Below are positions 397 to 53,271 of a DNA stretch of 64,000 nucleotides, piece by piece. The position numbers were made by a program, and so were the translations under genes. The stretch is taken from positions 124,001 through 188,000 of the forward strand of contig WSYJ01000158.1 of NCBI GenBank assembly GCA_020186115.1, read 5' to 3'. Below the pieces are notes generated by a model, which had not been told where the DNA came from, did not search any database, and worked only from the letters and a program-made list of their open reading frames with translations. Within the stretch, counting starts at the first letter, position 1, and each line of letters opens with the position of its first letter. The stretch is from Histomonas meleagridis (taxonomy: Eukaryota; Parabasalia; Tritrichomonadida; Dientamoebidae).

Positions 397-1771
397 ATGT
401 CGAAACAAGGGATTACAAATCAAGAAAATTCTTTAAATAAGGTAAGCAAATCTAATTACATGGAATTACTAACTTCACTTGACAAAATCATATTTAATTT
501 AACTGAAGAAAATATTGAAACTTCAATTCAACAAACAATGAAATTATTCGATTTAACTTTCCCATATTCATTTAATACCGTTATATGCAATTTAGTTTTT
601 TCTTCATTTTGTTCTCAAAAATCTTTATTTGATAAATATTTGAATTATTTACTCCAACTTCAAAAGAGAGAAGGAGAAATTGACAAAAACATCAAAATCA
701 TTGATATTTTCGTTAAATGTATCATTAAAAATAAAACACAAGAATCATATTATTTAATTGAGAAAATGATTGAACAAAATTTAATTGATGCAAAGCATTA
801 CTAAAAATATTAAATCGAAATATTTTGCACATTATAAAACAGAAAAAGAATTCAATGATATATTCACTGGCTTTGGTTTTAAAAATCCATTTGAGAATAA
901 ATTTTTAGGTAATTATAAAGAAATCTCAAAAAACAATTTCGAGCTTCATAAGAAATATGTTAAAGAAGGAGTTAATTCAAATGAAATTGCGAAAATAATT
1001 CGGAATGATGATATTGAAAAACTTCAAGAAATATCATCGCATGTTAATTTTGATTTTAATCAAACGATTGCACCATCAATATATGAAAGATGTGACTTTA
1101 TTAATAAAGAAAATGTTTCATTAATTGATTATGCAGCATTTTTTGGATCAGTTAAATGTTTTAAATATTTACTTATGAATGACGCTAGATTATTTTTCAC
1201 AGGTAAATATGCAGTTGCAGGTGGAAATGAAGAAATCATTCATTTATGTGAACTAAATCATTCATCATTTGAAGGTGCATATGAAACAGCAATTAAGTTT
1301 CATCATAATGATATCTTTAAATATATTTATGATAATAAATTAGAAAAATTGGATGAAACCAATCAGCAAAGTTCTGATGGTAATTCTTGTAAATCGCCAT
1401 TTGGTAGTTTTTCTTTTTTTGGAAATAGATTTCAAAATCAAACAAATTTTGGAAGCTTTGGAATATCTTCTATGTATAGCAGATTTAAATCTGAAACTCC
1501 AACAACGAATATAAATGATTTGAGATATTTTTGTGTTGATAGTAGTAATTTTGAAATTTTATCATATTTAGAAGAAAAAGAAGTGAAAATTAATGATTCT
1601 ATTATTAATGAATCTGCTAAAAATGGTAATTTGTATCTTGTTAAACATTTTCTTATAAATAATCAAATTCCAAAAAATATTTTGGAGTTTGCTATTGGAT
1701 ATGGAAATGTTGAACTTATTATATATCTTTTAGAACAAGAAGGAATTGATATTAATGCAACAGATGTTTAA
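397..1771 (+). pseudogene. DUF3447/ankyrin protein, N-terminal part, frameshifted (locus 1)
   Basis: This is the N-terminal region of a trichomonad DUF3447 ankyrin protein. The start is the ATG at 397, 20 bases after an AACCGTT site; paralogues in the window begin similarly with a short polar leader. The first frame (397-804) has the alpha-helical leader with IIFNLTEENIE. The second frame (from about 800) carries IRNDDIEKLQEI, SLIDYAAFFGSVKCFKYLL and GKYAVAGGNEEIIHLCE, the DUF3447 signature, and one ankyrin unit ending in GIDINATD. The two frames overlap around 785-804. Paralogues read straight through this point, so a small indel has split the gene. An FG/GF-rich insert lies at about 1355-1510. 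The reading frame ends at 1769-1771, just inside the first spacer. The gene is probably broken, unless the indel is an assembly error. Confidence 0.75.
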
Positions 1772-2105
1772 TTATGTTGTTTAAATTTTAAATATTTGAT
1801 TTGATATTTTGAAACAATATTTGGAACTTATTTGAATTATTTAATACAGCACTTATGTTTGCATCTAAAAATGGTTACACAGAATTGGTTGAATTGCTTT
1901 TAAAAAAAGGAGCAAATTGTAATGAAGAAAATCTTCATTTTAATGATTTAAAATAATTTACTTTAAATGCTTGAAATTCGTTATCATAAAATAAAACTTA
2001 TATGCATAATTTGAAACAGCACTTCATTTGGCAGTTGAACATAATAGAATTGAAATCGTTAAAATTCTTTTAGCTCAAAAAGGCATTGATATTAACCCAA
2101 TAAAT

Positions 2106-2305
2106 GTTTATTTTTTTGATTTTATATTAATTTTAACAATTTGTTATATGTTTTAATGTTTTGGAATTAATTTTAATGATTTGAAATTTGTTATAAAAAT
2201 TTGGAATTTGTTTCAAATTTTTAAAATTTGTTATAATAATTTTATGTTTATTACAAAAATTTGAAATTAATTTATATGATTTGGTATTTTATACACACAT
2301 TTAAA
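2106..2305 (+). repeat. 20-bp periodic AT-rich spacer, 10 units
   Basis: Exactly 200 bases between two ankyrin modules, made of ten degenerate 20-base units resembling ATTTATTTTAATAATTTGAT. The phase is kept throughout, with substitutions but no visible indels. Confidence 0.75.
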
Positions 2306-2395
2306 ACACCGCTTCATTTGGTAGTTCAACACAACAATATTAAAATGGTTAAATTACTATTAAAATATCCTGAAATCAATATTAATGCATCAAAT

Positions 2396-2895
2396 GTTTG
2401 TTTTTATTGTTTACTATTCATATTACATATTTAATGTTGTTATTTAAAATTTGATATATATTTTTATAATTTGAATTTTTTTCAAATGTTTTTGGGTTTT
2501 TCTAATCAAATTAATGTTTATTTTGACAATTTGATATTTACTTTTATAATTTGAAATTTACTTTTATAATTTGATATTTACATTTATAATTTGACGTTGG
2601 TTTGACCAATTTTATATTTAATTTAATCTCTTCCGATTTATTTTTATAATTTAATGTTTATTTTGCAAATTTACTGTTTATTTTAAAGATTTGAGATTTA
2701 TTTTGAATATTTGATATTTGTTTCACCAATTTGAAATATATTCAAATAATTTTATGTTTGTTTTTATAATTCATGATTTATTTGAATGTTTTTGTATTTG
2801 TTTTAATAATTTAAAGTTTGTTTGGATGATTTTATGTTTGTTTTATTGATTTTATATCCATTTTGATCATTTGGAATTTGTTTTCTTAATTTGAA
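2396..2895 (+). repeat. 20-bp periodic AT-rich spacer, 25 units
   Basis: Exactly 500 bases between ankyrin modules. Successive 20-base units share a pattern of TTGATATTTA followed by TTTTTATAAT, differing mostly by substitutions. The clearest stretch is 2531-2600. Stops occur in the frame of the flanking modules. Confidence 0.8.
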
Positions 2896-2985
2896 ACACC
2901 ACTACATTTAGCAGTTAAGAACAATAATATAGAAATAGTCAAATTACTTTTAGAGCATGAAGAAATTAATATTAATGCAAAAACA

Positions 2986-3527: not shown

Positions 3528-3618
3528 ACACCTCTTCACATTGCAGTTAAAAAATAATAACATTGAAATCGTGAAATTACTTTTAGCACAAAACAATATT
3601 AATATTAATGCAATGAAT

Positions 3619-3901: not shown

Positions 3902-3991
3902 TCACCATTTCATTTAGCAGTTAAATATGATAACATAGAAATTGCCAAATTACTTTTAGAACATGAAGGAATTGATGTTAACGAAAAAGGT

Positions 3992-5310: not shown

Positions 5311-6010
5311 AAAAAGTGATTCCACACTTTAATAAACAAAAAAGCAATAATTTTTATTTTTCATTCATAAAAATTAATAATGTTTATGATGACCTGTTTA
5401 TTGTTCTGATTCGTAAAAAGATAGAAGAAAAAGGTTTTTAAAAATATACAATTAATTGTTGATTATGGTTCATAAGCGAATTGATTCCAGACTTCATTTA
5501 CTTTAGTGTTTAAACTATGATTAATGAAAACCCAATCATTATTTTAAAAAAAATAGGTAATTAATATTTAATTAAGAAGATTAATTTAAATATTTAATAC
5601 CAAAAAATGAATAAATTTTTTGGTAAAAGCCAGTTGTTATTTTTATGAATTGTATAAAAAACGATCGTTATGACATTTTTTCTATATTTTATGTAATCGG
5701 TTTTGAATCCTTTCTTGCATCATTTTTATGCGACTTGAGGTTTCCTGGTTTCACTGATTTTGTACATTCATTTGTAATAAATTATGAAATAATGAATCAC
5801 CAATGTAAAGTTCCAGAAACGTGACTACACTTTTAATTAAATGCTAAAGTTATCATTGCATAATTTATTTTATAATACACATAATATTATTGTAATCATT
5901 AACATTTTAAATTGATGGAAATCCATTGAGAGTTATATTTTTTCACTAAGAGATTACGTTTAAAAATTTGGTCGCATGTTTACGGCGGGGAAGCCGTTTA
6001 CCGCAATAAA
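5311..6010. other. Intergenic region with promoter of the Uso1-like gene
   Basis: No gene seen. A palindromic AACGATCGTTA lies near 5650. Just before the next ATG (6011), AAGCCGTTTACCG at 5991-6003 is a good candidate Myb-like promoter element. Confidence 0.45.
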
Positions 6011-8461
6011 ATGAATTTCTTCAAATTTCTTGCACCTGAAGCAGAAGAAACAGATGAAGAATTTGTTGAACACAAAGTCAATGATTTAATAAATGGCATA
6101 AACGAAAAAGATACAATTATTGATTTATTACAATTTGCAAAAACTTATTCGAATTTAATTGGTTCTAACGCATGTCCAACGCTTATTCACAATCTAGATA
6201 AATACATTAAAGATGATAATGTTGTTTCTAACATTTTATTAATTTTGTCTAATTTGATTCAAGAAGAATCACCAACTTCTGTGACTAATTCTTTAAATAT
6301 TCTTGATTCTGAAGGATCTCTTAGCATTATTTCTACATGTCTTAAATCACAAAAGTCTTCAATTCGAGGACAAGCTCTTTCAATAATATCACGTTTAGTT
6401 AAACTTCAAATATCAAACATACAAAAATCATTTCTAGAAGACAATGATTTTAAGTCAAACTTATTATCTCTTGAAGAAGATTCATCTGAAATGATAAAAT
6501 CAAATTTTCTTTATTTAATTCCAGATTTTGTTAAAGACAATGAAACCGTTCAACAAATTTTCTCCTTTAATCTTATGGATTCACTTATTCGTGAAGTTCA
6601 ATCTGATCCATCCAAAATCATTCCTGTCATTTATTCACTTCTCCAAGATAACTTAATCACGCAAAAGATGTTTGTTGAGATGGGGCATCTTTCTATCTTT
6701 CTTCCATCGATTAAATTAAAAGATGATAAATCCATTCAATTACTTTCTATGCTTTTTTCATCGAATGATTCTTCGTCATTTCGGAAATTTTTGATTTCTT
6801 CGGGTTTATTTCAACCAGTCTTAGAGTATTCAACAGAACCTAATGAAAAACGATCTGATTTTCTTCGACTTTTAGGACTTTTCATCAAAGGAAATCCAGA
6901 ATTATGTTCGAAGCTAACAGAACAAAATGATTCCTTGGAAAAGATTTTAAACATTTCGATATTTTCTACTGATGAAAATGAACGTAAATCAGCTTTTTTT
7001 TGCATTGAATCATATCTCTTTAAATCATTAACAACATCGAATTCACTTTCGAACATAATATGTAAGAACAATGGAAACAAAACTTCATCATTATTAGGAA
7101 CATTTAATGAACATATCAATGAAGTTATTTCATTATTAAATATTTCATGTAGTTGTATATTAGCGAATCATGAAACGATTTTAATATTTTTCGGTCCTAA
7201 TTTACCAAACACAACAAAATGTTTTTTAACGTATGTAATCGATATTGTTTTAAATGTTAATGATATTAATTCGAATATTTTAATCAATGCGTTTCAATTT
7301 ATTTGTGGCACAATTTGGGAATCGACTTCAGCTACAACGCATTTTATTAAAACTTTATCGAATACTAAAATGAAAGATTCACAAACAGGTATAGTATTTA
7401 TATTAAAACTTTGTTCTACTGATTCACCACCATTAACACGAAAAATCGCTTCTTTATTACTTTTAGAATGTTTGTTATTTAAAGATTTGAATGAACCTTC
7501 TTTTAATGAATTAATAACAGCACTTAAAACAGGTCAAATAAAATTTGCACATTTAATATCAATTGTAAATGAATATTTAATTGATTTAAATAATTGTGAA
7601 CAAATTCTTTGGAAAGAATTTGCTCATGAATTAATACATTTAATAAAAAAGAATACTGATATCCTTTTAATTAATGAAGTTATACATAGTGATTCAGTAC
7701 AAATTGCTTCGTTAAAAAATACTATTGATAAGTTAACTAAAGAAAATATTGAGCTTACAACAGAAAAAGAAAAATTATTAAAAGAAACTGAATCACATTA
7801 CCAAGAAATAGAACGATTACAAAAAGAAAACGAAGATATTACTTCTGCTATTGAAATATTAGAAAATGCTTTAGCACGACAAGAAAATAATGATGAAAAA
7901 GTTAAGACTAATAAAGATTATGAAGAATTATTAAATATGTTTAATGAAAATGATACTGAACTTCGAAAACAAATACAAATTCTTCAAGAAGAAAATCAAA
8001 TTTTATCCGAAAAAGATAATAAAACAGAATTAATACAAGAAATTAATCAAATGAAAAAGAAAATTGATGAATTACAAAACGAAGATATTAAAATTCTTCA
8101 AGAAGAATTAAATAATCAAATTGAAATCCAAGAAGATTTAAATAATCAATTACAATTAACGCAAAAAATATCAGAAGAAAAACAAAGTAATCTTGAAAAA
8201 ACTGAAAATGAATTAGTTGAAGCTTATAATACACTTGATGAATTAAACGAAGAACTTCGAAAGAAAAAAGATAAAATTAAAGAACTCAAAAAATATTTAA
8301 ATGAAAATTCACAAAATGTAAATGATGAAAATGAAATTAAAGAATTACGTAATGAATATAATAATCAATTACATTTAATGGAAAAACTTAATCAACAATT
8401 ATTAGAAACACAAAAAATTTCGGATGAAAATAAAAAGAATTTACAAAAAACTGAAGATTAA
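6011..8461 (+). CDS. Uso1/p115-like vesicle-tethering golgin, N-terminal head and first coiled coil
   Basis: A protein of Golgi vesicle tethering. Residues 1 to about 560 form a helical armadillo-like head whose opening (VNDLINGINEK, then LLQFAKTYSNLIGSNACPTL) resembles the p115/Uso1 head. From about residue 570 it becomes a continuous E/K/Q/N-rich coiled coil. The start is the only sensible ATG, 8 bases after a GCCGTTTACC element. The frame stops at TAA 8459-8461, but the same frame stays open and coiled-coil straight after it for another 1192 codons. The stop stands where the preceding repeat has a Glu codon (GAA), so a single G-to-T change would explain it. The head assignment rests on resemblance by eye and is moderately sure; the coiled coil is certain. 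Confidence 0.7.
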   Translation: MNFFKFLAPEAEETDEEFVEHKVNDLINGINEKDTIIDLLQFAKTYSNLIGSNACPTLIHNLDKYIKDDNVVSNILLILSNLIQEESPTSVTNSLNILDSEGSLSIISTCLKSQKSSIRGQALSIISRLVKLQISNIQKSFLEDNDFKSNLLSLEEDSSEMIKSNFLYLIPDFVKDNETVQQIFSFNLMDSLIREVQSDPSKIIPVIYSLLQDNLITQKMFVEMGHLSIFLPSIKLKDDKSIQLLSMLFSSNDSSSFRKFLISSGLFQPVLEYSTEPNEKRSDFLRLLGLFIKGNPELCSKLTEQNDSLEKILNISIFSTDENERKSAFFCIESYLFKSLTTSNSLSNIICKNNGNKTSSLLGTFNEHINEVISLLNISCSCILANHETILIFFGPNLPNTTKCFLTYVIDIVLNVNDINSNILINAFQFICGTIWESTSATTHFIKTLSNTKMKDSQTGIVFILKLCSTDSPPLTRKIASLLLLECLLFKDLNEPSFNELITALKTGQIKFAHLISIVNEYLIDLNNCEQILWKEFAHELIHLIKKNTDILLINEVIHSDSVQIASLKNTIDKLTKENIELTTEKEKLLKETESHYQEIERLQKENEDITSAIEILENALARQENNDEKVKTNKDYEELLNMFNENDTELRKQIQILQEENQILSEKDNKTELIQEINQMKKKIDELQNEDIKILQEELNNQIEIQEDLNNQLQLTQKISEEKQSNLEKTENELVEAYNTLDELNEELRKKKDKIKELKKYLNENSQNVNDENEIKELRNEYNNQLHLMEKLNQQLLETQKISDENKKNLQKTED

Positions 8462-11400: not shown

Positions 11401-12037
11401 GATTGAAGCTAAACAACAACAACAACAAAATAATAATAACAAAACGCAAAACGAAAAAATTCTTCAAATAGAAGAAATTAAACATTTGAATCAAATAATT
11501 AAAAATCAACAAAATGATTTAAATCAATTTCGTTTAATTGTTGATAAATATAATGAACAAAAAGTAAAAATTAAAAAGTTAACATCAATACTTAAGAATA
11601 CATTGCAACAAAACGAAATAATTCGAAACGAAAATGAAACATTAAAAAATAAAATTGAAACACTTTCAACTGCACCAACACAAGAAGCAATGATACAATC
11701 GTTACTTAGAGATAATTCTTCCAAATCTAAACAAATATATGAACTTCAACAACAAATTGAAACACTTAAAAACTCAAAACATTCAAATGATAAACAAAAA
11801 ATTGAACAACTAAAAGCAAAATATGAAAAGAATCGAAAAGTTGTAATCGATGCATTAAATTTAAGTGAGAAATTCCAACAGAAAACAGAAATAACATTAA
11901 AAGAAAATGAAGAACTGAACAGAAAAGTCGAAATTCTGGAAATGCAACTGAAGAATGAAAAAGAAAAAAATAAAATCCTAAAAGAAAAACATTCTGCAGC
12001 ACTCAGATTGATTGGAGAACTATGGCAGAAGAAATGA
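8462..12037 (+). CDS. Uso1/p115-like golgin, C-terminal coiled coil (after in-frame TAA)
   Basis: The same frame as the gene before it continues from 8462. The first ATG is at 8585, after a run of Asn codons, and the frame ends at TGA 12035-12037. It encodes about 1190 residues of almost unbroken coiled coil, very rich in Glu, Lys, Gln and Asn, including a tandem array of 33-residue units near 10.36-10.8 kb. The last ~100 residues are less repetitive and end in LRLIGELWQKK. Golgins of this type are long rods that bridge vesicles and Golgi membranes. Read with the upstream half it would make one protein of about 2,000 residues. If the TAA is real, this half is untranslated or starts internally at 8585. 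Confidence 0.65.
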   Translation, partial: LVEAYNTIEDIKQKLQKKKEKIKNLKNINNNNNNNNNEEQKMIKTLQNKIKQLQNDIEKQISQINLLKNQIDEKETEIKQIKLTSESEITNLKNEIQKLHTLNKEKEQIIETLTTKINNIQQEKEQKINEQNSIINSLNDNIKELEKNNNLTKELQEKELLEFESKNKKLNLQINELKEQINLIANNQQIESSKKISDLIDKNNELSNKIQKFEKQIEELNDQKSKIQNLLNNKYNEFDKLQIEIKESNEKVEKLSNLNENQNQKIKENNKQIERLNNKIEALENEQKLNNSSNNNKIQELNEQINIKTKEINKFKEDIQKIKEENQNKEQQITNYKQKIEEKEKDLIKLEKKKQKIIKFKQLIEENNKKIDEKEKEIQVLNEKLLKLEKTLKESNEKQNLEINNSNNEISKLMKQNNEIQQKNKTQKEEINELKSKIKVLEEIEEKQKNEIKKLKDSIDEINVQNQNLINKKEEQIKELQCEIKDLIEQIKNDSDSKKEIIKISETYEKNIAQLEKQNEENENKIKIILEQNQKEIQKIQNENENKIKIILEQNQKEITKIQKEKEAEIRKIQNENQTEIDKLKKDKETEIEKIKNENENKIKSILEQNQNEIIKFQQEKEIEIKKLQQENHKEINKLQKDKEIEIKKLQSENESKIKSIKEQSQKEINKLQQEKETEIIKIQSENESKIKSIKEQSQKEINKLQQEKETEIIKIQSENENKIKSIKEQSQKEINKLQQEKETEIIKIQNENENKIKSILEQNQKEINKLQQEKETEINKMQNEKVYYTNEIEKLQNNNKTKLDKLQNELNLKVENVGQIINEKEEEIKRLEELLNKQKTESQNEIKEMTQKFENNIIKLEKEKENKIQTIEKEKEEEVNNNQIQISNLKKLLSEKDKTEEQLNKKIIKEGKIILSLKKQIESYDKAEKEQISDENEITKFQNQIKENETKINQQQKLINVLKKENKKQNIEIIELRKWIEAKQQQQQNNNNKTQNEKILQIEEIKHLNQIIKNQQNDLNQFRLIVDKYNEQKVKIKKLTSILKNTLQQNEIIRNENETLKNKIETLSTAPTQEAMIQSLLRDNSSKSKQIYELQQQIETLKNSKHSNDKQKIEQLKAKYEKNRKVVIDALNLSEKFQQKTEITLKENEELNRKVEILEMQLKNEKEKNKILKEKHSAALRLIGELWQKK
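10365..10815 (+). repeat. 99-bp tandem repeats inside the golgin coiled coil
   Basis: A 33-residue unit (INKLQQEKETEIIKIQ, then NE/SE, then KIKSIKEQSQKE) is repeated. The string AAGAAATTAA falls at 10461, 10560, 10659 and 10758, spaced exactly 99 bases apart. Copies are nearly identical at DNA level, which suggests recent tandem duplication that kept the reading frame. Confidence 0.85.
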
Positions 12038-15294: not shown

Positions 15295-16536
15295 ATGAAA
15301 AAAAAGGTTTTTCTAATTTCATTTTTTGTAATGGGAAGTTTTCAAAGTCAAACAAATAAAACCTACGAAAATCTCCAAATGTGTAAGTGCCTTGAACAAA
15401 TCATTTTTGAATTAAATGATGATAATATATTGGAAACAGTGGAAGCAACATTAAAATATTTTGATCAAGAAAATTCATATTCATTTAATCTTATCATTTG
15501 TTCAATTACGTATTCATATTTTGTTAAAAAAGGCTTTTGTGATATATGTTTTGAATATTTGAAAACTCTTGAAATAAAAGAAAATGAAATTTATAGTAAT
15601 TTGAATGATAAAATCAGAAATATTTTTGTTACGTTTTTAGAGAAAAAATATAATACACAAGAATCAAATTATCTTTATGAAAAGTTGCTCCAAAACAAAA
15701 CTATATCAATTAATCCAGAAATTTTAAAAAACAAAAGAACACCATATTTTTCACATTATATTTCAGAAGGAAAATATAATGGAAATTACAAAAGCTTTTA
15801 TGACAATATAAAAGAATTAAAAAAGAATGATTGGGAACTTCATAAGAAATATATTAACGAAGGACATAATCCAAATGAATTAGCTAAAATAATTCGAAAT
15901 GATGAAATCGAAAAACTTCAAGAAATGTCATCACTAAAAAACTTTGATTTTGATCAAATAATAAAACCATCACTTTATGAAAGATGTTCATTCATTAATA
16001 CACAAAATGTTTCATTAATTGATTATGCAGCATTTTTTGGATCAGTTAAATGTTTTAAATATTTAATTATGAATAATGCAAAAGTAGAAAACACAGGAAA
16101 ATATGCAGTTGCAGGTGGAAATGAAGAAATCATTCATTTATGTGAACAAAATCATTCATCATTTAAAGGTTCATATGAAGCAGCAATTATTTTTCATCAA
16201 AATGATATCTTTAAATATCTTTATGAAAATAATATTGAAAATTTTAATAATTTAAAAAAATTAGGGAAAAAATGTATTGAGTTTTTTGCTTATGAAATTT
16301 TCTCATTTTTATTAGAAGAAGGAATGGAAATCAATAAAAATATAATTAATGAATCTGCAAAAAGAGGAAATTTGTTTCTTGTTCAAAATTTTTTGGAATA
16401 CAACAAAATTCCAGACGATTTTTTGTTTTATGCTTTGGAATCATATAATTTAGAACTTGTAAATTTTATTATTAGACAAAATGGATATGATATTAATGAA
16501 AAAAATGTACATTATTTTGTTTTAAAGTATATTTAA
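15295..16536 (+). CDS. DUF3447/ankyrin protein, N-terminal part (locus 2, intact frame)
   Basis: An intact 413-codon frame of the trichomonad DUF3447 ankyrin family. It has the helical leader (CLEQIIFELNDDN), LAKIIRNDEIEKLQEMSS, SLIDYAAFFGSVKCFKYLI, GKYAVAGGNEEIIHLCEQNHSSF and then ankyrin-like units up to GYDINEKN. Paralogues start near the second in-frame ATG at 15331 (MGSFQSQTNK), so that may be the true start; the first gives an extra hydrophobic 12-residue leader. The frame ends about 10 codons inside the first AT-rich spacer, and eight clean ankyrin modules follow in other frames. Ankyrin proteins bind other proteins; the target is unknown. Confidence 0.8.
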   Translation: MKKKVFLISFFVMGSFQSQTNKTYENLQMCKCLEQIIFELNDDNILETVEATLKYFDQENSYSFNLIICSITYSYFVKKGFCDICFEYLKTLEIKENEIYSNLNDKIRNIFVTFLEKKYNTQESNYLYEKLLQNKTISINPEILKNKRTPYFSHYISEGKYNGNYKSFYDNIKELKKNDWELHKKYINEGHNPNELAKIIRNDEIEKLQEMSSLKNFDFDQIIKPSLYERCSFINTQNVSLIDYAAFFGSVKCFKYLIMNNAKVENTGKYAVAGGNEEIIHLCEQNHSSFKGSYEAAIIFHQNDIFKYLYENNIENFNNLKKLGKKCIEFFAYEIFSFLLEEGMEINKNIINESAKRGNLFLVQNFLEYNKIPDDFLFYALESYNLELVNFIIRQNGYDINEKNVHYFVLKYI

Positions 16537-16586
16537 AGTATTTATATTCGAGTTTAAAACTTTGGCTTTATTTTTTGATATTTTTG

Positions 16587-17957
16587 ACTCCACTTATTTG
16601 GGCTTCTTGGCATAATCGTGTAGAAATAGTTAAAATACTTCTTGATCAAAAAGGAATTGATGTAAATGCTAAAGCTATAAATTTATTTTATTTTATGTTT
16701 GGTTTAATGATTTCAGAATATTTCAAAATAATTTTTGGAAATTATTTAGATTATTTTGTACAGCACTTATCTATGCATCTTGTAATGGTAACATAGAAAT
16801 CGTTAAATTACTTCTTGAACAAAAAAGAATTGATGTAAATGCTAAAAATATTCATTTGTTTTATTTTGGATATATTTTAATAATTTGATATTTCAAAATA
16901 ATATTTGGAAATTATTTAAGATATTTGAAACAGCACTTATTTTAGCATCTCGAAATGGTCACACAGAAATAGTTAAATTACTTCTTGAACAAAAAGGAAT
17001 TGTTATTAATGCTAAAGATAAAATTTCTATGTTTTAATTTGGATTTATTTTAATAATTTTTTATTTCAAAATAATATTTGGAATCTATTTAAATTATTTA
17101 AAACAGCACTTATTCACGCATACGAAAATGGTCATACAGAAATAGTTAAATTACTTCTTGAACAAGAAGGAATTGATATTAATGCTAAAGATGATATTAA
17201 TTTTGATAATTTGATATTTCGAAATAATATTTGGAAATTATTTGAGATATTTAAAACAGCACTTATGTGGGCATCTACATATCATAAAATAAAAATCGTT
17301 AAATTACTTCTTGGGCAAAAAGGAATTGATGTTAATGCCAGTGATAAAATTTATTTGTTTTATTTTGGATTTATTTTAATAATTTAATATTTCAAAATAA
17401 TATTTGGAAATTATTTAAATAATTTAATACAGCATTTATGATGGCATCTTGGAATGGTCATACAGAAATAGTTAAATTGCTTCTTGAACAAAAAGGAATT
17501 GATATTAATGCTAAAGATGATATTAATTTTGATAATTTGATATTTCGAAATAATATTTGGAAATTATTTAAATTATTATGGACAGCACTTATGAAAGCAT
17601 CTTGGAATGGTCACACAGAAATAGTTAAATTACTTCTTGAACAAAAAGGAATTGATATTAATGCTAAAGATATTTCTTTGTTTTATTTAATATTTATTTT
17701 AATAATGTTCTATTTCGAAATAATATTTGGAAATTATTTAAATTATTTAAAACAGCACTTATGAAAGCATCTGAAAAAGGTCATACAGAAATAGTTAAAT
17801 TACTTCTTGAACAAAAAGGAATTGATATTAATGCTAAAGATATTCATTCGTTTTATTTGAATTTTGTTTTAACAATTTAATATTTCAAAATAATATTTGA
17901 AGATTATTCAATTTATTTTATAAAGAAATTATGAGAGCATCTAATAAACAGAAATAG
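16587..17957 (+). other. Eight ankyrin modules with 63/80/83-nt spacers (locus 2)
   Basis: Modules of 30 codons begin at 16587, 16760, 16930, 17103, 17256, 17429, 17582 and 17752. All eight are stop-free and read like TALMKASWNGHTEIVKLLLE followed by QKGIDINAKD. Spacers, including the one before the first module, measure 80, 83, 80, 83, 63, 83, 63 and 80. Two 63-base spacers are fully open in frame, so 17438-17764 forms a two-module frame. Modules and spacers at 17.1-17.9 kb are nearly identical, which points to recent duplication of the 170-base composite. A degraded ninth unit ends the array near 17957. No UBR box or tail follows. Confidence 0.75.
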
Positions 17958-17960
17958 AGA

Positions 17961-19958: not shown

Positions 19959-19959
19959 A

Positions 19960-30353: not shown

Positions 30354-31599
30354 ACAGCATTAATGATCGCATTTGCAAATGGTCAAATTGAAATAGTTAA
30401 ACTAATTTTTGAACATGGAGGAATTAATATTAATGATAAAGATATTGATTTCATATATTTAAAATTTATTATAAAAAATATTATGTTTCAAAAAATTAAT
30501 TGGAATTTATTTTGATTATTTGAAACAGCTCTTATGGGATCATATAGAAATGGACATTTAGATATATTCGAGTTACTTCTTGAACAAAAAGATATTGATA
30601 TTAATACTATTGATATTTATTTATATCATTTGTTGTTAATTAGAAAATGTTTTGTTTCATCATAACATATGGAATTTCATTATAATATTTTGGACATTAT
30701 TTATGAGGGCATCAGCAAATGGTAATATTGATGTTGTTAAAATACTTCTTAAGCAGAAAAACATTGACATTAATGAGAAAGTTTATTTTATTTATTCAAT
30801 TTTTGAATTATAAATTTAATATTTTAATATAATATATGGAATTCATTCATATTATTTTATAATGCATTTTTATTAGCAGCAGAAAATGGTCAAAAAGATG
30901 TTCTTGAATTACTTATTGAAAAAGGAGTTGATATCAATTCAAAAGATATTTATTCATTTTATTTAATATTTATTCTAATAACTTAGAATTTGAAAATAAT
31001 ATTTGGAAATTGTATATAATTTTTGAAACAGCACTCATGAAAGCTTCTGAAAAAGGATGTGTTGAAATTGTAAAATTCCTTCTTGAACAAAAAGGAATTG
31101 ATATCAAGAATTTGTTGTTATTATATAATTTTTATTTCATTAATTTAATATTTCAAAGTATTATTTGGAAATTTTTTATATTATTTCAGACAGCACTTAT
31201 TTTAGCAACAGCATTCAATCGCATAGAAATATTTAAATTACTTCTTGAACTTGAAGGAATTGATTAAAATGCTAAAGATATTTCTTTGTTTTACATGAAA
31301 TTTATAATAATAATTTTGTATTTATTAAAAAAGCATGGAGTTTAATTAAATTATTTAACACCGCACTTATTTTAGCAATATTAAATCGTAATCTAGAAAT
31401 AGCTAAATTACTTATTCAACATAAAGTAGTTGATGTAAATGCTAAAAATTCTAAAGGGCAAACACCAATTATTATTGCAGCTGCTAGAAACGAAGAAGAT
31501 ATTGTTAAAATGCTTCAACAAAAAGAAGGAATTAAATACACACAAAAAGAATTAGATGATGCATCAAACATTTTCCAAAATAGTTTTAATGATTCTGAT
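30354..31599 (+). other. Seven spaced ankyrin modules plus one unspaced module (locus 3)
   Basis: Modules begin at 30354, 30525, 30694, 30861, 31028, 31190 and 31360. Six are clean; the sixth has TAA at 31265-31267 where ATT is expected. Spacers measure 91, 81, 79, 77, 80, 78 and 80, that is, close to 80 but drifting, unlike loci 2 and 4. The final boundary has no spacer: it reads NAKN, then SKGQ, then TPIII. This shows the normal four-residue ankyrin linker that is missing from the spaced boundaries. A linker leads on to the UBR box. Confidence 0.7.
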
Positions 31600-40691: not shown

Positions 40692-41534
40692 CTAAAAGAA
40701 AAATGGGTTGTAAATGTTGCGAAGTTGTGAAGTTTCTTGTGGATTATTCCTTAAGATTTTCCTTTTCTTTTTAGATTGAATGCCTTCCGTTTGAGTACTA
40801 ATGTCAATTTTCTGCTTATTCGAAGTTTTATGTATTGTTTCTTTTTGCTTTTTTCCAGCAATAGGTTTTGATTGTTCATGAATTGTTTGCTCAATTATTT
40901 GAAAAACCTCTTCACCACCAATACATAATTTTACTTGTTCATTATATAATTTGTCAATTCTTTGAAAGGCTTCTTCACCACCAATACATAATTTTACTTG
41001 TTCATTATAAAACTTACCTTTTTTTTGGAAGATTTCTACACCAAGGCATAATTTTAGATGTTTATTCTCCACAATTTTTTGTTGATTTTCTTCATTCATA
41101 TCATTAGAAAATTTTAATTGTTCACTATTGTTTTGTATCATCTTTTGTTGGTTGGTTTCTCTTTCCACAAGTGGTTTTGTTTGTTCGTTTTTGTCTTGAA
41201 TAATTTTCGTTTGATTTATTTCTCTTTCAATTATAAATTTTGGCTGCTCGTTATTCATTTCTATTTTATGTTGATTATCTTCTTTCACAGCATTCGGAGA
41301 TTTTGTTTCTTCATTATTTAATGAAATTTTTTGCTGATTAGTTTCTTTTCCCAGAAGTAGTTTTATTTGTTCATTATTGTCTTGTACAGTTTTTGGTTTA
41401 TTTTCTTCTTTCGCAATACCAATAAGTTTTGGTTGTTCATTGCTTTCAGAGAATGGTCCGCTTAAACCTTTTGGTGAAGCAGTAATTCTATTTCCAAATT
41501 GGTAATATTCTGGTTGATATCTATATGGAACAGG
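40692..41534 (-). CDS. C-terminal repetitive tail of ankyrin locus 4 (last exon)
   Basis: An open minus-strand frame of about 280 codons with no ATG near its beginning, starting PVPYRYQPEYYQFGNR at 41534. It is rich in Glu, Asn, Gln and Lys and built of degenerate units of 20-25 residues around NNEQxK and NQxKI, with two near-identical copies of YNEQVKLCIGGEE. It ends in a basic segment (SKKKRKILRNN) and TAA. It joins in frame to the last ankyrin module across a 39-base intron-like sequence, so I read it as the final exon of the gene beginning at 43955. The paralogues at loci 3 and 5 instead end in a UBR box. Confidence 0.6.
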   Translation of the reverse strand, partial: PVPYRYQPEYYQFGNRITASPKGLSGPFSESNEQPKLIGIAKEENKPKTVQDNNEQIKLLLGKETNQQKISLNNEETKSPNAVKEDNQHKIEMNNEQPKFIIEREINQTKIIQDKNEQTKPLVERETNQQKMIQNNSEQLKFSNDMNEENQQKIVENKHLKLCLGVEIFQKKGKFYNEQVKLCIGGEEAFQRIDKLYNEQVKLCIGGEEVFQIIEQTIHEQSKPIAGKKQKETIHKTSNKQKIDISTQTEGIQSKKKRKILRNNPQETSQLRNIYNPFFF

Positions 41535-41573
41535 CTAATAAGTTAATAAACTATAAATGATTTTAATAAATAC
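41535..41573 (-). other. Putative 39-nt spliceosomal intron
   Basis: On the minus strand this stretch starts GTATTT and ends ATTAACTTATTAG: a 5' splice site, a TTAAC branch-like motif and a terminal AG. T. vaginalis introns use GTATGT and ACTAACACACAG, which is similar in plan. Removing it joins NDF to PVPYRY in frame (phase 0), bypassing an in-frame stop. It is the only conventional-looking intron I found. Confidence 0.6.
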
Positions 41574-42525
41574 GAAATCATTTAAGAAAATATTTTGTTC
41601 TCTCAATTCATTTATGCGTTGCTCAAGTAATTTCACTATTTCTTCATTACCATTAGCTCTTGCTTTATCAAGTGGTGAATTAAATTATTTAAATAGTTTC
41701 CAAATATTTAATCAAAATTCTTTATATTTTGTAATAATATTATATAAAGCATATAAACAGTTGGAGTAAAAACATTAATTTCCTTTCTTTCAAGAAGCAA
41801 TTTAACAATATCAGCATGATCATTTTCACATGCCCATAAAAGTGCTGTACTAAATATTACAAATAAATTCCAAATTAAATTTAAAAATTCCAAATAATTT
41901 TAATAAATTTTAAGCAAAAAGAAATAATATTCCGATAATTAACATTAATCTCTTTTCTTTCAAGAAGTAATTTAACAATTTCTGTAGCACCGCTTTGAGC
42001 TGCCAAAATAAGTGGTGACCAAAATAAACAAAACAAACGCAAACACTGCATAAAAAACACCGAAATTGAAAAAGATACTCCAATTGAACAAAATAAGCAT
42101 TTGAAGCATTAATATTAATATCTTTATGCTCAAGAAGTAATTTAGCAGCTTCTGTACACCTATTTCTAGCTGCTATCAAAAGGGCTGAAAAAAATATTTT
42201 ATATAATCAAAAATTATATAAAAATTTGAAATAGTTAAAATAAAAGTTAAACGTAAAAAGTAAACATCTTGTGTATTAACATCAATTCCTTTTTCTCCAA
42301 GAAGTAATTTGACTACTTCATAATTATTATATTGTGATGCTAAAATAAGTGCTGTACTCAATAATTTTATAGAATTCTAAATATAATATTGAAACATTAC
42401 ATAAATAAAACAAAATCTATAAATGAAAAATAAATATTTCGATCGTTGATATAAATTTCATTATGTTCAAGAAGTAACTTTACTATTTCTTTATAATTGT
42501 TTATTGATGCAATCATAAGTGCTGA
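41574..42525 (-). other. Six ankyrin modules with 80-nt spacers (locus 4)
   Basis: On the minus strand, modules begin at 42525, 42355, 42188, 42018, 41848 and 41678 and are all free of stops. Spacers, counted from the DUF3447 part onward, are 80 (42526-42605), 80, 77, 80, 80 and 80 bases. One spacer (42019-42098) is much less AT-repetitive, yet is exactly 80 bases. The last module (SPLDKARANGNEEIVKLL) runs to NDF at 41574 and then into the intron-like sequence and tail exon. With an intact N-terminal frame, clean modules and near-constant spacers, this is the best-preserved locus. Confidence 0.75.
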
Positions 42526-42566
42526 ATATAATAATTTAAATAATTTTCATATATTTAATTAAAAAA

Positions 42567-43955
42567 TTATATTAATGAAATAAAATCTATATTAAATAAT
42601 TGAACATCTTTTTTGTTAATATTTTTAATGTTATATCCCGTTTGATCAAGAATATATTTTACAAGTTCAAAATTACCTGATTCTGATGCAAAAATTAAAA
42701 TATCGTTTGGAATTGAATATTTTTGAAGATAATGTTTCACAAGATATAAGTTTCCGATTTTAGCTGCTTCATTGATAATATATTTATCAATTTGCATAAC
42801 TTCTTCTTCCAAAAATGAGAGAATTTCATAATTACCATAATTATTACAAACTACCCATAAATGATTATACTTTTTTGGAAATAATTTTGTAAGAGGAATT
42901 GTATGGTACTTGGCGACACTTCCTCTAAATCCTAGAAAATTCATATCATTATCATATTGTTCATGTTGTATTTTAACATCTTCATCGATTATTTCTAATT
43001 TATTTTCATAAATATATTTGAAAATGTCATTTCTATGAAACATAATTGCTGGTTCATATGCATTATCAAATTTAACATGATTTTGTTCACATAAATGAAC
43101 AATTTCAATGTTTCCTCCTGCAACTGCATATTTACCAGTATTATCTAATTTAGCGTTATTTAATAATAAATATTTAAAACATTTTATCGATCCAAAAAAT
43201 GCAGCATAATCAACCAATGAAACCTTCCATTTGTTAATGAATGAACATGTTTCATATAAAGATGGTTGAATTGCCTGATTATAATCAAAATTAGTTTGTG
43301 AAGATATTTCTTGAAGTTTTTCTACATTATCATTTCGTATTATATTTGAGATTTCTGATACATTAATTCCTTCTGCAATATATTTCTTATGAAGTTCATA
43401 ATCATTAGCTATAAGTTTATCATAATTTTCTTTAAAATATCCACTAAATGAATCGCTATAATAATCTGTTTTATTTTCTTCTTCTGTTTTATAATGTGCA
43501 AAATATTTTGATCGAATTTTATTTGTAATATTTGAATCAATTAATTTCTGCTCAATTAACTGATTAATTAACCACCAAGATTCATGTGAGTTGATTCCTA
43601 ACAAATATTTACTTAAAATATCAATGGTCTTTTCACTGCTATTTATTTCCTCTTCCTTTGTTTGGAGTATTTTTATAAAATTTATGTATAGTAAACCTTT
43701 ATTTTTTTGTGAAATAAATGAAGAATATATTAAATTACATATAATAGAATTTAATGAATATACTGTATTTGAATCTACAAATTTTAGTACTTGCTCTATT
43801 GAGACATCCAAATTTTCTTCTGTTAAATCAAATATGATTTGTTCCAGATCATATAGAACTTGCATATTGGGAGATTTCGCCTTTGCGATGATATCTTTTT
43901 GATCTGATGAATTTCCTGTGCATGCTGATTCTTTTTTATTGTTATTGGAACTCAT
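42567..43955 (-). CDS. DUF3447/ankyrin protein, N-terminal part (locus 4, intact frame)
   Basis: An intact 462-codon frame starting MSSNNNKKESACTG. It has the helical leader (LEQIIFDLTEENLD), ISNIIRNDNVEKLQEISS, SLVDYAAFFGSIKCFKYLLL, GKYAVAGGNIEIVHLCEQNH and an ankyrin-like end NIKNINKKD, then stops 15 codons inside the first spacer. A variable insert (about 330-375) replaces the FG-rich insert of locus 1. TAGCGGTTATGA at 44004-44015 (TAACCGCTA on this strand) is the promoter-type element. Downstream are six ankyrin modules and a repetitive tail. The family is thought to be cytosolic; its partners are unknown. Confidence 0.85.
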   Translation of the reverse strand: MSSNNNKKESACTGNSSDQKDIIAKAKSPNMQVLYDLEQIIFDLTEENLDVSIEQVLKFVDSNTVYSLNSIICNLIYSSFISQKNKGLLYINFIKILQTKEEEINSSEKTIDILSKYLLGINSHESWWLINQLIEQKLIDSNITNKIRSKYFAHYKTEEENKTDYYSDSFSGYFKENYDKLIANDYELHKKYIAEGINVSEISNIIRNDNVEKLQEISSQTNFDYNQAIQPSLYETCSFINKWKVSLVDYAAFFGSIKCFKYLLLNNAKLDNTGKYAVAGGNIEIVHLCEQNHVKFDNAYEPAIMFHRNDIFKYIYENKLEIIDEDVKIQHEQYDNDMNFLGFRGSVAKYHTIPLTKLFPKKYNHLWVVCNNYGNYEILSFLEEEVMQIDKYIINEAAKIGNLYLVKHYLQKYSIPNDILIFASESGNFELVKYILDQTGYNIKNINKKDVQLFNIDFISLI

Positions 43956-50352: not shown

Positions 50353-51026
50353 GCTTCCTGGAAGAATTTGAACGAAATGTCATTTTTTAACAAACCGATA
50401 ACATCCTGTTTTCGAAATCAAAACCGTTATATTTAAAACGAATTTGAATTGTATAACCGATCAAATCACAAAATAATTTGACAATAATTTGCCATGATTT
50501 TAAACTTTGAAAAATTAAAGATATGAAAAATTTTCACATCAAATATTTCAACACAATTAAAATTTTTCTTTTTAAAATTAATGATAAAATTTTCGTATCA
50601 ATGGTCATTTGTGCTTCATCTCATAGATAATTATTTTCAAATAGAAATACTTACAAAAGTTAAGGAAATTATTATACATGATAATTATAGAAAAAATATA
50701 AATGTTTAGATCAAGAAAATTAAACAAGAAAATTCATGTGCTTAGATTAACACAATAAACAAAAGCCAGAATGTAAATATTTTGTCATTTAATAGGTTTA
50801 TTTTTTTTTGGAATGTTGGTACGAAATGGTCTCACTTTTACTCACACCACTTTTTGTATAATTTACATAATCGGGCACTCAAAAGAAATAACCGTCGCTA
50901 TACTCATATTTTTTCAACACAATATTTTGACAACTAAAATTAACCAAAAAATCCATTATGTCAAAATATCGATATCTTTTCAATAGTTTACGTCATATAT
51001 AAACCATTCAATTAAGCTAAAAAGAA
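50353..51026. other. Intergenic region between pseudokinase and ankyrin locus 5
   Basis: It holds AAACCGTTATA at 50421-50432 and AACCGATAAC at 50393-50402, which face the pseudokinase start. The ~200 codons expected at the 5' end of the locus 5 ankyrin gene are absent here. Confidence 0.45.
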
Positions 51027-51857
51027 ATGACATCACAAAATAATTTTGATTTTAATAAAAAAATTGAGCCATCGCTTTATGAAAGATGCTCATTTATAAA
51101 TCAAGGAAATGTTTCATTAATTGATTATACAGCATTTTTTGGATCAATTAATTGTTTTAAATATTTACTTATGAATAATGCAAATATAATAAACACAGGT
51201 AAATATGCAATTGCAGGTGGAAATATTGAGATTATTCATTTATGCGAATAAAATAATTAATCATTTGAAGATGCATATGAAACAGCAATATTGTTCCATC
51301 AAAATGATATCTTTTATTATGCTTATGAAAATAATTTAGAATATCGATATTTGAAATGTGCTCAATCCAACATGTCCTGGGGGGACCTACCTAATCAACA
51401 ATTAGGTTATCCTAAGTTCCCTCAAAACATTAATGGATGGGAGGTATATTCAAAAAAACACAATGGGGAAGTTCATCAGCAAATAATAATAATCAAAATT
51501 CGGGGTGGGGAGATCCATCTACATCACAATGGACAAACTCTCCTTGCGCATCACAGTGGAAAGATACCAGTTTAAGTTCTTCCAAAGCACGAAAACGTAT
51601 TACATTAAGTTTATCGTGCATTACAAGTGGAAATTATGAAATCCTTTCATTTTTAATCAACGAGGGAATGGAAATCAATGAGAATATGATTAAAAAAGTG
51701 ATGGTAATTTATGTCTTGTAAATCACTTTCTTGCAAATAAGCAAATACCAACTGATGTTTTATTATATGCTTCTGAAACAGGAAACGTCGAACTTGTTAA
51801 ATATATTCTTAATAAAAAGGAATTATATGGATATAATATCCAAGAAATTCATATGCT
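51027..51857 (+). pseudogene. DUF3447/ankyrin protein, truncated and broken N-terminal part (locus 5)
   Basis: It starts in the middle of the family's conserved region (SQNNFDFNKKIEPSLYERCS) and lacks about 200 upstream residues. It then has SLIDYTAFFGSINCFKYLLM and GKYAIAGGNIEIIHLCE before in-frame TAA codons at 51249 and 51258, where paralogues have Gln and Ser. A frameshifted, Trp/Gly-rich insert (SWGDL, TQWGSS, SGWGDP, SQWKDT) lies at about 51370-51575. The family sequence resumes with GNYEILSFLINEGMEI in a third frame. It is a decayed copy. Confidence 0.8.
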
Positions 51858-53271
51858 TTGTTTAAAGCTACAATCATGAAATCATTAGAAAATAGTAATA
51901 ATGAAATAATTAATATACTTATCGAGCAAGAAGGAATTAATAATATCAATGATTTGATTTATTTGCATTGCTTAAAATTTGTTTTAAATATTTCAAGTTT
52001 TAATCAAAAATTTGAAATTTATTTTAAGAATTTCAGGCAACACTTGTAAATGAATTGGATATGTATCATACTAAAATGCTTAAATTACTTTAGAGGAAAA
52101 AAATTAATATTAACTTTCAAGGTATTTAATTCGATATTTTGGAATTTGATTTTATCATAGAAAATTTATATAAATTATTTAATAAAACAGCACTCATAAT
52201 TGCAGCTAATAAAGGCTATACAGAAATTGTTAAATCATTTCTTAAACAATCAGATATTAACATTAATTCCTATAATTTTTTTTCAATATGTTTATGATTT
52301 GCATAAATAATTTCATATTTCAAAATTAAATTATTTGAAACTGCACTCACACTTGCAATTAAAAGGTTATATAGAAATAGTTAAATTACTTCTTGAACAA
52401 GAAGGAATAGATATTAATTGTGGAAATATTCCAAAATAATATTAGGAATTTATTTAATTGATTTAGTGGAAGGATTGTTCAAACACCTAATGGTAGAACA
52501 ATGGTTTCAAATGAATCACCACTTCTTTATTTGTACGATATAAAACTACTTTTTATGTATGCAATATCAAAAGATCATTTAGAAATAGTTAAATTGTTTC
52601 TTGAACAACATACAATTAATATTAATGTTAAAGATAATATTTAATTTATTGATTTAAAATTTATAATATTTTTTTTTTGAATTTGTTTATGTGATATAAA
52701 ACTGCTTAAATGCATGCTGCATCAAAAAGTCACTTAGATATAGTTCAACTATTTCTTGAATATGAAGGAATTATTAGAATTGATATTGGTGATGTTTAAT
52801 TAAGTAATTTTTTGTTCTATAATAATATTTAATGTTTATTTATATTGTTTAAATCAATTTTTATTTTAGCTATAATAAATGGTCAAACAGAAATCGTTAA
52901 AATATATATTAAACAAAAAGGAATTTATAGTTTGAACCAATATATATATATATATATATATATATTAATAATTTGAAATTTCATTCAAATATTTAGAAAT
53001 TATATATAATGTTTAATGCAGCACTTATTTTAGCATCATTAAATGGTTCTATAGATATTGTTAAACTACTTCTTGTACAAAAAGGAATTGATGTTAATGC
53101 AAAAACTGTTGATTTAAAATGCTTGCTACATATTTTATTGATTTAAAATATCAAAATAATATTTGGAAATTGTTAATTTTATTTAAAACAGCACTCATGC
53201 TTGCATATGAATTTGGTCATATTGTAATAGTTAAATTACTTCTTGAACAAAAAGGAATTATTAATATTGTA
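51858..53271 (+). other. Decayed ankyrin modules and spacers (locus 5)
   Basis: Ankyrin-like units are recognisable at about 51860, 52190, 52340, 52545, 52710, 52868, 53012 and 53188. Several have stops or shifts: for example, two bases are missing in the unit at 52340 near AAAAGGTT. Two spacers still have the family lengths: 63 bases at 52277-52339 and exactly 80 at 53108-53187. A (TA)n tract of about 25 bases occupies 52941-52966. The last unit (TALMLAYEFGHIVIVKLLLE) joins without a spacer, through NIVDNNGKK, to the linker of the UBR box. Confidence 0.65.

What the first reader, a model, noticed from the sequence alone, without database searches (positions are those of the whole stretch)
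1766..53271. Ankyrin modules in five loci are split at one exact point by spacers of fixed or quantised length (80 nt)
Counting from the end of the last NAKD-type codon to the start of the next TALM-type Thr codon, spacers measure exactly 80 bases in at least 14 cases over five loci on both strands. Others are 60, 63, 77 or 83; long ones are 200, 283, 339, 500 and 542. The 80-base spacers align without gaps. One (42019-42098) has lost most of the sequence pattern but is still exactly 80. Random decay or ordinary introns would not hold one length at one codon position. I know of no described element that does this in trichomonads. Possible readings: a non-standard intron class with a length ruler, DNA elimination, or programmed recoding.
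Basis: seen in the sequence. Interest (0 to 1): 0.95.

Follow-up and report, generated by a model that had tools for sequence, protein, structure and literature searches.

The report
Seventeen-base inserts split ankyrin loops codon-by-codon
In the poultry parasite Histomonas, members of a large family of ankyrin-repeat genes appear to be interrupted, codon by codon, by inserts of exactly 17 bases that fit no described intron class and would have to be removed or skipped for the protein to be made.

Summary
The window lies in Histomonas meleagridis. In the window plus 25 fetched loci, 166 of 230 inter-module spacers are exactly 80 nt. The ruler is 17, not 80. An 80-nt spacer is four units of [17 nt + one codon]: D-[17]-x-[17]-x-[17]-G-[17]-x-T-A-L. 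Read across the 17-mers, the codons give the ankyrin loop D-x-x-G-x-T. In 153 such spacers the four codons hold 0 stops of 612 (about 38 expected from columns) and Gly at position 3 in 133. The other three are hypervariable, like module residues 5 and 8. Two related genes show the ladder itself: loops of 12, 29, 46 and 63 nt, that is 12+17k, side by side, besides two exceptions of 30 and 65. Genome-wide, 3,292 places match an element-bearing loop (control 0); codon 4 is a stop in 4 of them. Elements lack AG ends, the trichomonad branch site and codon periodicity. Best reading: 17-nt intervening sequences removed from the transcript by a non-canonical, length-ruled process. No RNA was available; removal is inferred.

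The parts
15295..16536 (+). Open N-terminal DUF3447/ankyrin frame of the 16.5-kb gene; coding up to the Asn codon at 16504-16506, then runs into the first element
   Evidence: ORF; Pfam PF11929 44.8 bits; junction
16507..16586 (+). 80-nt spacer at the DUF3447 junction: four 17-mers (16507-16523, 16527-16543, 16547-16563, 16567-16583), loop codons K,I,G,L
16677..16759 (+). 83-nt spacer (four 17-mers + five codons; placement of the extra codon ambiguous)
16850..16929 (+). 80-nt spacer, loop codons W,D,G,E
17020..17102 (+). 83-nt spacer, codons K,W,F,G,K
17193..17255 (+). 63-nt spacer: one 17-mer absent, three 17-mers, codons D,D,G,K
17346..17428 (+). 83-nt spacer, codons K,W,N,G,N
17519..17581 (+). 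63-nt spacer, codons D,D,G,W
17672..17751 (+). 80-nt spacer, codons N,S,G,K
17842..17921 (+). 80-nt spacer, codons E,N,E,Y, followed by a short last piece ending in a stop
42567..43955 (-). Open N-terminal DUF3447/ankyrin frame of the minus-strand gene; coding up to 42606, then runs into the first element
   Evidence: ORF; Pfam; junction
42526..42605 (-). 80-nt spacer, codons R,N,E,Y
42356..42435 (-). 80-nt spacer, codons R,N,R,S
42189..42265 (-). 77-nt spacer: four 17-mers, three codons N,Q,D
42019..42098 (-). 80-nt spacer with strongly diverged elements, codons G,G,C,W
41849..41928 (-). 80-nt spacer, codons K,G,G,S
41679..41758 (-). 80-nt spacer, codons N,R,G,N
41535..41591 (-). C-terminal junction: three 17-mers separated by codons R and I
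40692..41534 (-). Last piece of the minus-strand gene: open for 280 codons to the stop
1766..1845 (+). 80-nt spacer, codons K,D,G,N
2106..2305 (+). 200-nt array: ten 20-nt units, ten codons, no stop
2396..2895 (+). 500-nt array: twenty-five 20-nt units, 25 codons, no stop
31450..31461 (+). Element-free loop (12 nt, S,K,G,Q) in the last repeat of the 30-kb locus

Best explanation
The spacers are chains of 17-nt intervening sequences with one codon between neighbours. The codons are the four (sometimes 3 or 5, in arrays 10 or 25) residues of the ankyrin loop D-x-x-G-x-T. SHOWN from sequence: the 17+3 lattice and its length; the ladder 12, 29, 46, 63, 80; near-absence of stops and codon-like behaviour at the lattice triplets; no codon periodicity in the 17-mers. 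INFERRED: the 17-mers are cut out of the transcript before translation, by a process that recognises weak end signals (about RTTT at the 5' end, TTT at the 3' end) and a fixed length of 17. It is not GT-AG splicing as described for trichomonads, though a derived spliceosome is not excluded: the three single-element loops found all start with GT. Arrays grow by tandem duplication of element plus codon and shrink by exact loss of a 17-mer. The product is a family of ankyrin proteins with a diversified surface.
For: Stops in the four triplets 0 of 612 (38 expected from columns). Of 127 distinct 80-nt spacers with flanks, 0 have a stop in the loop codons; 28 (counted from base 21 only), 68 and 126 have one in the three continuous frames. 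L3 is Gly in 133 of 153. L1, L2 and L4 have amino-acid diversity 0.82-0.88, as do module residues 5 and 8 (0.84, 0.88), which have no flanking element. All pairs of bases within L1, L2 and L4 are dependent (0 of 500 shuffles reach the observed value). Elements show no codon periodicity (0.145/0.118/0.128) and are most conserved at positions 2-3 and 15-17. Two other genes of the genome hold loops of 12, 12, 12, 63, 46, 29 nt (L035) and 12, 29, 65, 30, 12, 29 nt (L036); the three 29-nt loops read A-E-G-[17]-R, I-S-K-[17]-N and K-N-G-[17]-K before T-P. Genome: 3,292 element-bearing loops, control 0; GGA to codon 4 is 17 nt in 3,107 places and 18 nt in 17; codon 4 is a stop in 4 of 3,292. 148 of 150 scored DUF3447 domains have no stop.
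Against: No RNA, protein or ribosome data were available. Three-base exons between 17-nt introns are hard to reconcile with any known spliceosome. No structure in the spacers (MFE z 0.21 against mononucleotide shuffles, 25 of 120 spacers). Module dN/dS is about 0.92, which alone would fit weak constraint. Some dependence crosses the codon edges: L4's first base with the base before it (0 of 500 shuffles reach it), L3's third base with the next (0 of 500), L1's third base with the next (3 of 500). Two of 153 units with an 80-nt spacer have a stop in the module, and the module scan penalises stops. In L036 spacers of 30 and 65 nt break the ladder. All element-bearing genes seen are ankyrin genes, so a general machinery is not shown.
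Confidence: 0.6

Rival explanations
1. Translational bypass: the mRNA keeps the 17-mers and the ribosome skips each one, decoding one codon per 20 nt in the arrays.
For: Fits the fixed length, the codon lattice and the lack of splice signals equally well.
Against: In described hopping (recalled) the take-off and landing triplets match. Here the triplet before the landing codon is mostly TTT while the codon before the element is usually hypervariable. Up to 25 successive skips would be needed. No structure seen.
Confidence: 0.13
2. DNA-level elimination: the assembly shows a precursor genome and the expressed copies lack the elements.
For: Would explain precise removal without splice signals.
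Against: None of the 27 element-free pattern hits has the ACAGCACTTAT start of the 3,292 element-bearing loops. Element-free loops do exist in the family, but in the two hits fetched (of 27) they sit in genes that also carry elements, so they are not processed copies. Boundaries are not TA-bounded: codon 3 is usually GGA followed by AATT. No nuclear dimorphism is known in parabasalids (recalled).
Confidence: 0.08
3. Silent or relict arrays: a satellite-like 170-bp repeat with no protein product, the codon pattern being inherited.
For: Tandem homogenised 170-bp units; module dN/dS about 0.92; two of five window loci are visibly decayed.
Against: Loop stops 0 of 612 locally and 4 of 3,292 at codon 4 genome-wide. 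Hypervariability sits at the ankyrin surface positions. 148 of 150 DUF3447 domains without stops. Mixed genes with 0-3 elements per loop keep open frames around single elements.
Confidence: 0.12
4. The spacer, or its last 60-63 nt, is translated as a 21-residue linker in the downstream frame.
For: 63-nt spacers are in frame and 26 gaps in metagenome ORFs read through them (21 residues).
Against: 28 of 127 distinct 80-nt spacers have a stop in that frame; L028 has TGA in successive units where the loop codon reads Glu. No codon periodicity. 20-nt arrays and 29- or 46-nt spacers cannot stay in frame.
Confidence: 0.05
5. Ordinary GT-AG spliceosomal introns of about 68-80 nt spanning the spacer.
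For: Trichomonads have type A introns of 56-196 nt (PMC12316389); some junctions read CAG; several 17-mers begin with GT.
Against: First base A in 95% of 80-nt spacers; no ACTAA-type branch motif in the consensus; removing the whole spacer would drop the hypervariable codons and the Gly. Single elements of 17 nt exist.
Confidence: 0.02

Closest known systems
Trichomonad spliceosomal introns, types A and B (T. vaginalis, T. stableri)
   Same: Short, T-rich elements in a parabasalid; type B are 23-28 nt of nearly fixed length (PMC12316389, passages read); some 17-mers also start with GT
   Different: They have GT/AG and a fused ACTAA branch site, one (rarely two) per gene; these are 17 nt, lack AG and the branch site, and come in chains with one-codon exons
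Nonconventional introns of euglenids and diplonemids
   Same: No conserved GT-AG borders, unknown removal mechanism (abstract starts of PMC6221363 and PMC4770533, seen in a listing)
   Different: Those bring their ends together by stable RNA structure; here no structure was detected and length is fixed at 17
Translational bypass elements (phage T4 gene 60; byps of yeast mitochondria; recalled)
   Same: Non-coding stretch between codons, no splice signal
   Different: 17 nt, nuclear, thousands of copies, chained, no matching take-off and landing codons
Ultra-short ciliate introns (about 25 bp in Paramecium, PMC5014332 abstract start; 15 nt in Stentor, PMC6679479 passage)
   Same: Extreme shortness
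   Different: Those are spliceosomal introns of many genes; these lack the borders and leave 3-nt exons (contrast in exon size recalled)
Ankyrin repeats with a randomised surface (DARPin design positions; recalled)
   Same: Hypervariable residues fall at D-x-x-G-x-T and two helix positions
   Different: Here it is natural diversity and three of the five variable codons are fenced by elements

Membership tests
DUF3447-ankyrin protein family | PF11929 match plus ankyrin repeats | tested here: met
   44.8 and 35.9 bits over cut-off 26.9, Ank_2 matches
DUF3447-ankyrin protein family | Loop D-x-x-G-x-T/S-A/P-L as four residues | tested here: met
   Loop codons give it; contiguous in L035 and L036 loops and in P0027, P0031
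GT-AG spliceosomal introns of trichomonads | GT at 5' end, AG at 3' end | tested here: not met
   Consensus begins ATTT and ends TTT. Three single elements begin GT and end TTT, TTT, TTG; one element at 41551-41535 is GT..AG
GT-AG spliceosomal introns of trichomonads | ACTAA branch site fused to the 3' end | tested here: not met
   Absent from the column consensus; motif from PMC12316389
GT-AG spliceosomal introns of trichomonads | Length at or above the reported minimum of 23 nt | tested here: not met
   17 nt
Euglenid nonconventional introns | Structure joining the two ends | tested here: not met
   MFE z mean 0.21, sd 0.81, whole 80-nt spacers only, 25 of 120
Translational bypass elements | Matching take-off and landing triplets | tested here: not met
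   TTT before landing, variable codons before take-off; criterion recalled
Translational bypass elements | Element present in mature mRNA | not testable with these tools
   No RNA reads
Internal eliminated sequences | TA dinucleotide at both boundaries (Paramecium; recalled) | tested here: not met
   GGA followed by AATT at most codon-3 boundaries
Internal eliminated sequences | Element-free copy of the same gene exists in DNA | tested here: inconclusive
   No hit with the ACAGCACTTAT start among 27; 2 of 27 examined and these are mixed genes; minor forms could be lost in assembly

The most novel reading that the evidence does not exclude
A previously undescribed class of intervening sequence: thousands of 17-nt elements without GT-AG borders, counted by length, that interrupt ankyrin genes between successive codons (up to 25 in a row) and are removed or skipped one by one, by a machinery other than the known spliceosome or a strongly altered one.
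Probability: 0.7. Interest if true: 0.97.

Novelty: categorically new. Interest (0 to 1): 0.93.

Why it matters
If the 17-mers are removed, they are shorter than the shortest trichomonad intron in the paper consulted (23 nt, PMC12316389), lack its splice signals, and leave exons of a single codon. That would need a processing or decoding activity not described in the papers I found. Genes with 0, 1, 2, 3 and 4 elements per loop make the gain of such elements directly traceable. It would also uncover a large, apparently diversifying protein family in a poultry parasite, which continuous-frame annotation would cut at the first element.

Tried and rejected
Whole 80-nt (or 68-nt) GT-AG introns: rejected on borders, on the loop codons and on single 17-nt elements. 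Translated linker: rejected on stops and periodicity. Codon-cassette shuffling between identical 17-mers as the source of diversity: not needed, because module residues 5 and 8 are as variable without flanking elements. RNA structure: none (the last loop of that script crashed and was rerun). A free-length dynamic parse gave 17 as the commonest length (541 elements in 185 short spacers, 110 in 20 long ones) but was noisy, because element could follow element without a codon. Its reversed control also peaks at 17 (81), since reversal keeps the 20-nt period; shuffling removes the peak (13). It counted 15 stops in 817 codons and 18 in 502 (reversed control 52 in 644, shuffled 87 in 754), partly from misparsing. 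Fixed-lattice reading of long arrays, drifted ones included, gives 4 stops in 153 codons against 17.5 expected. Counted from the 5' end, the 542- and 286-nt spacers are out of register for most of their length and the 149- and 339-nt ones near their 3' end, with stops in the first three named.

First version corrected: I had read the 27 element-free hits as foreign to the family. Two of them, fetched, are in ankyrin genes that also carry elements, one of them with a DUF3447 domain (C46); the other 25 were not examined. I had also argued that the ENA proteins come from another organism because of 46-54% identity. N-terminal frames of the two window genes match their best other fetched H. meleagridis loci at only 46-55%, and P0018, named H. 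meleagridis, is at 36%, so their origin is undetermined. The module word KILVEQ, in 13 of the ENA proteins P0070-P0127, is in 0 of 267 modules here, which hints at another source.

Elements outside ankyrin genes: of 5 isolated pattern hits fetched, 5 lay in such genes or a remnant. DNA for the ENA proteins: none found in two collections. An exact copy of P0016 was not returned from its own genome (best 69%, 99 of 2,719 candidates scored): unexplained, perhaps the first-look cap.

Literature: 10 searches. Titles and abstract starts listed there name no such element in Histomonas. Passages only were read in PMC8529796, PMC11978803, PMC6679479, PMC12316389 and PMC10063853.
Full report
WHERE IT IS. 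The window is G000:C93:124001-188000 of a 43,276,120-base, 121-contig assembly. Contig C120 is 3,384,422 bases long, exactly the largest contig published for the virulent Histomonas meleagridis strain (PMC8529796, Table 1, passage). That paper reports 573 introns in that strain, at most one per gene, and its main text does not contain the word ankyrin (passages only). H. meleagridis is a parabasalid of the Dientamoebidae.

THE OBSERVATION. A position-specific scan for the 30-residue ankyrin module in the window and 20 fetched 10-kb loci found 242 modules, and 153 consecutive pairs lie exactly 80 nt apart. With 5 more loci there are 267 modules and 230 spacers under 800 nt: 166 of 80, 13 of 63, 10 of 83. 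The fetched loci were chosen by DNA similarity to one window locus or by an element pattern, so these fractions are not an unbiased genome average. In the window itself 14 spacers are exactly 80.

WHAT THE SPACER IS. The 153 aligned 80-nt spacers have columns that are mostly 90-98% conserved, except at triplets 18-20, 38-40 and 78-80, while triplet 58-60 is mostly GGA. The four triplets are 20 nt apart. Each follows a 17-mer: ATTTATTTGTTTTATTT, ATTTATTTTAATAATTT, ATTTCAAAATAATATTT, AATTATTTAAATTATTT in consensus. Read across the 17-mers they give D-x-x-G-x-T-A-L, the ankyrin loop. With 30 module codons this makes a 34-residue repeat. The same four-residue loop is contiguous in DUF3447 proteins from other sources, for example P0027 and P0031.

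THE LADDER. Two further genes of the same genome, fetched because one search found element-free loops in them, show intermediate states. L035 has, among the loops measured, 12, 12, 12, 63, 46 and 29 nt; L036 has 12, 29, 65, 30, 12 and 29 nt. So zero, one, two and three 17-nt elements occur side by side, giving 12+17k. The three single-element loops read A-E-G-[GTTTTTCTAATTAATTT]-R, I-S-K-[GTATATTTTTAATGTTT]-N and K-N-G-[GTTTGTTTTGTGTTTTG]-K, each followed by T-P. Placement rests on the loop consensus; for the longer loops several placements fit. The 30- and 65-nt spacers do not fit the ladder. All three single elements begin with GT and none ends in AG.

TESTS OF THE CODON READING. (1) Stops: 0 of 612 triplets in the 153 spacers, about 38 expected if the three columns of each triplet were independent (9.0+10.8+1.9+16.5). 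Sliding the register by one base gives 232 stops in the 120 distinct spacers; some other registers also give none or few, because the 17-mers are uniform. (2) Residues: L3 is Gly in 133 of 153. L1, L2 and L4 are mostly N, K, E, D, Y, R, W, G or Q, with amino-acid diversity 0.82-0.88. Module residues 5 and 8 are equally variable (0.84, 0.88), the other module residues less so (0.60 or below; 140 distinct units). (3) Within L1, L2 and L4 all pairs of bases depend on each other, with no shuffle of 500 reaching the observed value. The base before L1 or L2 is independent of its first base. Dependence across the edge is seen before L4 (0 of 500), after L3 (0 of 500) and after L1 (3 of 500). (4) The elements show no codon periodicity in any frame (0.145/0.118/0.128) and are most conserved at positions 2-3 and 15-17. 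(5) Of 127 distinct spacers counted with their flanks, 0 have a stop in the four loop codons, against 28 (downstream frame, from base 21), 68 and 126 in the continuous frames.

QUANTISED LENGTHS. 63 is 80-17: one element is missing but its codon stays, for example at 17193-17255, reading D,D,G,K. 83 is an extra codon. 100 (L009) is an extra 20-nt unit. 200 and 500 nt (2106-2305, 2396-2895) are 10 and 25 units with no stop in 10 and 25 codons. Among 153 units at the 3' ends of 20 long spacers, drifted ones included, stops are 4 against 17.5 expected. The minus-strand gene at 40.7-44.0 kb is the best independent case in the window: its 27 elements have diverged widely, yet all are placed by a 17-nt lattice, every loop codon is sense, and the last piece stays open for 280 codons to 40692.

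GENOME SCALE. ATTT-NNN-ACAGCACTTAT occurs 3,292 times, its reversed control 0. The L4 codon is a stop in 4 of these (TRA 4, TAG 0); applying the sample rate of 16.5 in 153 would predict about 350, an extrapolation. A GGA lies exactly 17 nt before the L4 codon in 3,107 places, 18 nt in 17 and 16 nt in 116, with control 0 for each. The 16-nt hits can all be re-read as a codon xGG followed by a 17-mer beginning with A, so they do not show 16-nt elements. An element-free loop pattern gives 27 hits, none with the ACAGCACTTAT start; that pattern misses many loop spellings, so element-free loops are undercounted. The pair pattern RTTTRTTTN5ATTTN3RTTTRTTT gives 1,736 hits against 13 for the control. 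At about four per loop this suggests more than 10,000 elements, which I infer and did not count. Of DUF3447 domains, 148 of the 150 scored (of 1,695 candidates) have no stop inside.

OTHER SOURCES. ENA proteins of unnamed origin head the homologue lists (P0001-P0015, P0070 onward). Whether they come from another organism is undetermined. Their frames fit the same lattice. Of 64 ORF ends found within 40 residues of a module-like end among the 189 proteins, 9 lie exactly 12 residues after it, as expected if a stop forms from the last T of element 2 and the first bases of loop codon 2; 10 lie 1 residue after it. There are 37 in-frame gaps of 21 residues, of which I dropped 11 by eye as false hits inside the DUF3447 domain; the other 26 are 63-nt spacers, and in 22 of them the last residue is W, Y, E, R, Q or K. 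P0103, P0111, P0119 and P0120 read through and re-enter the next module in a shifted frame at a distance that I count by hand as 80 nt. The same list has 36 four-residue gaps.

MECHANISM. What is shown is that the lattice triplets behave as codons and the 17-mers do not. What follows by inference is that the 17-mers are absent from the product. I favour removal from the transcript (0.6). Ribosomal skipping (0.13), silent arrays (0.12), DNA elimination (0.08), a translated linker (0.05) and ordinary GT-AG introns (0.02) are less likely. The elements lack AG ends and the ACTAA branch site that trichomonad introns carry, and are shorter than the 23-nt minimum reported (PMC12316389, passages). That single elements begin with GT leaves room for a derived spliceosome. 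Spacer folding is no better than shuffles. Module dN/dS near 0.92 (1,005 pairs of a random 1,500) shows no strong purifying selection overall, which I read as diversifying surface residues averaged with conserved ones; it could also mean weak constraint. How 3-nt exons could be handled is open.

KNOWN OR NEW. None of ten literature searches listed a paper whose title or abstract start describes this. It works like a chain of minimal introns, but each of the four described classes considered (trichomonad spliceosomal introns, euglenid nonconventional introns, IESs, bypass elements) fails at least one defining feature that I tested. I therefore rate it categorically new, with the reservation that RNA evidence is missing.

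Noticed in passing
window 53119-53625 (+), and by eye about 31600-31850 (+): A UBR-box zinc finger (PF02207) follows the ankyrin repeats in two loci (Pfam match tested only for the first), suggesting a DUF3447-ankyrin-UBR architecture.
   Followed up: partly
L028, spacers at 5410-6090 (+): A run of five consecutive units has Glu (GAA) instead of Gly at loop codon 3, which would be a TGA stop in the read-through frame.
   Followed up: partly
L035 (G000:C46:3800-6300) and L036 (G000:C74:367500-369500): Mixed genes with element-free and element-bearing loops; the single elements start with GT, unlike the ATTT consensus of the large arrays. A possible early stage of element gain.
   Followed up: partly
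window 376-1771 (+): The N-terminal DUF3447 frame of the first locus is split into two overlapping ORFs, so this copy may be decaying although its 25-unit array has no stop.
   Followed up: no
L031, about 1640-1900 on the minus strand: A short remnant of an element-bearing ankyrin repeat lies directly beside an LRR-like gene end.
   Followed up: no
L032 (minus strand): A subfamily with a different element consensus, ATATGTTTTAATAATTT, keeps the same 17+3 lattice in loops of varying unit number.
   Followed up: partly
G000 versus P0016: The deposited H. meleagridis protein P0016, from a contig of the same length as C120, was not returned at full identity by the genome search (best 69%).
   Followed up: no
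window 8585-12037 (+): A 1150-codon open frame in very A-rich, low-G+C sequence (AT skew 0.42-0.51).
   Followed up: no
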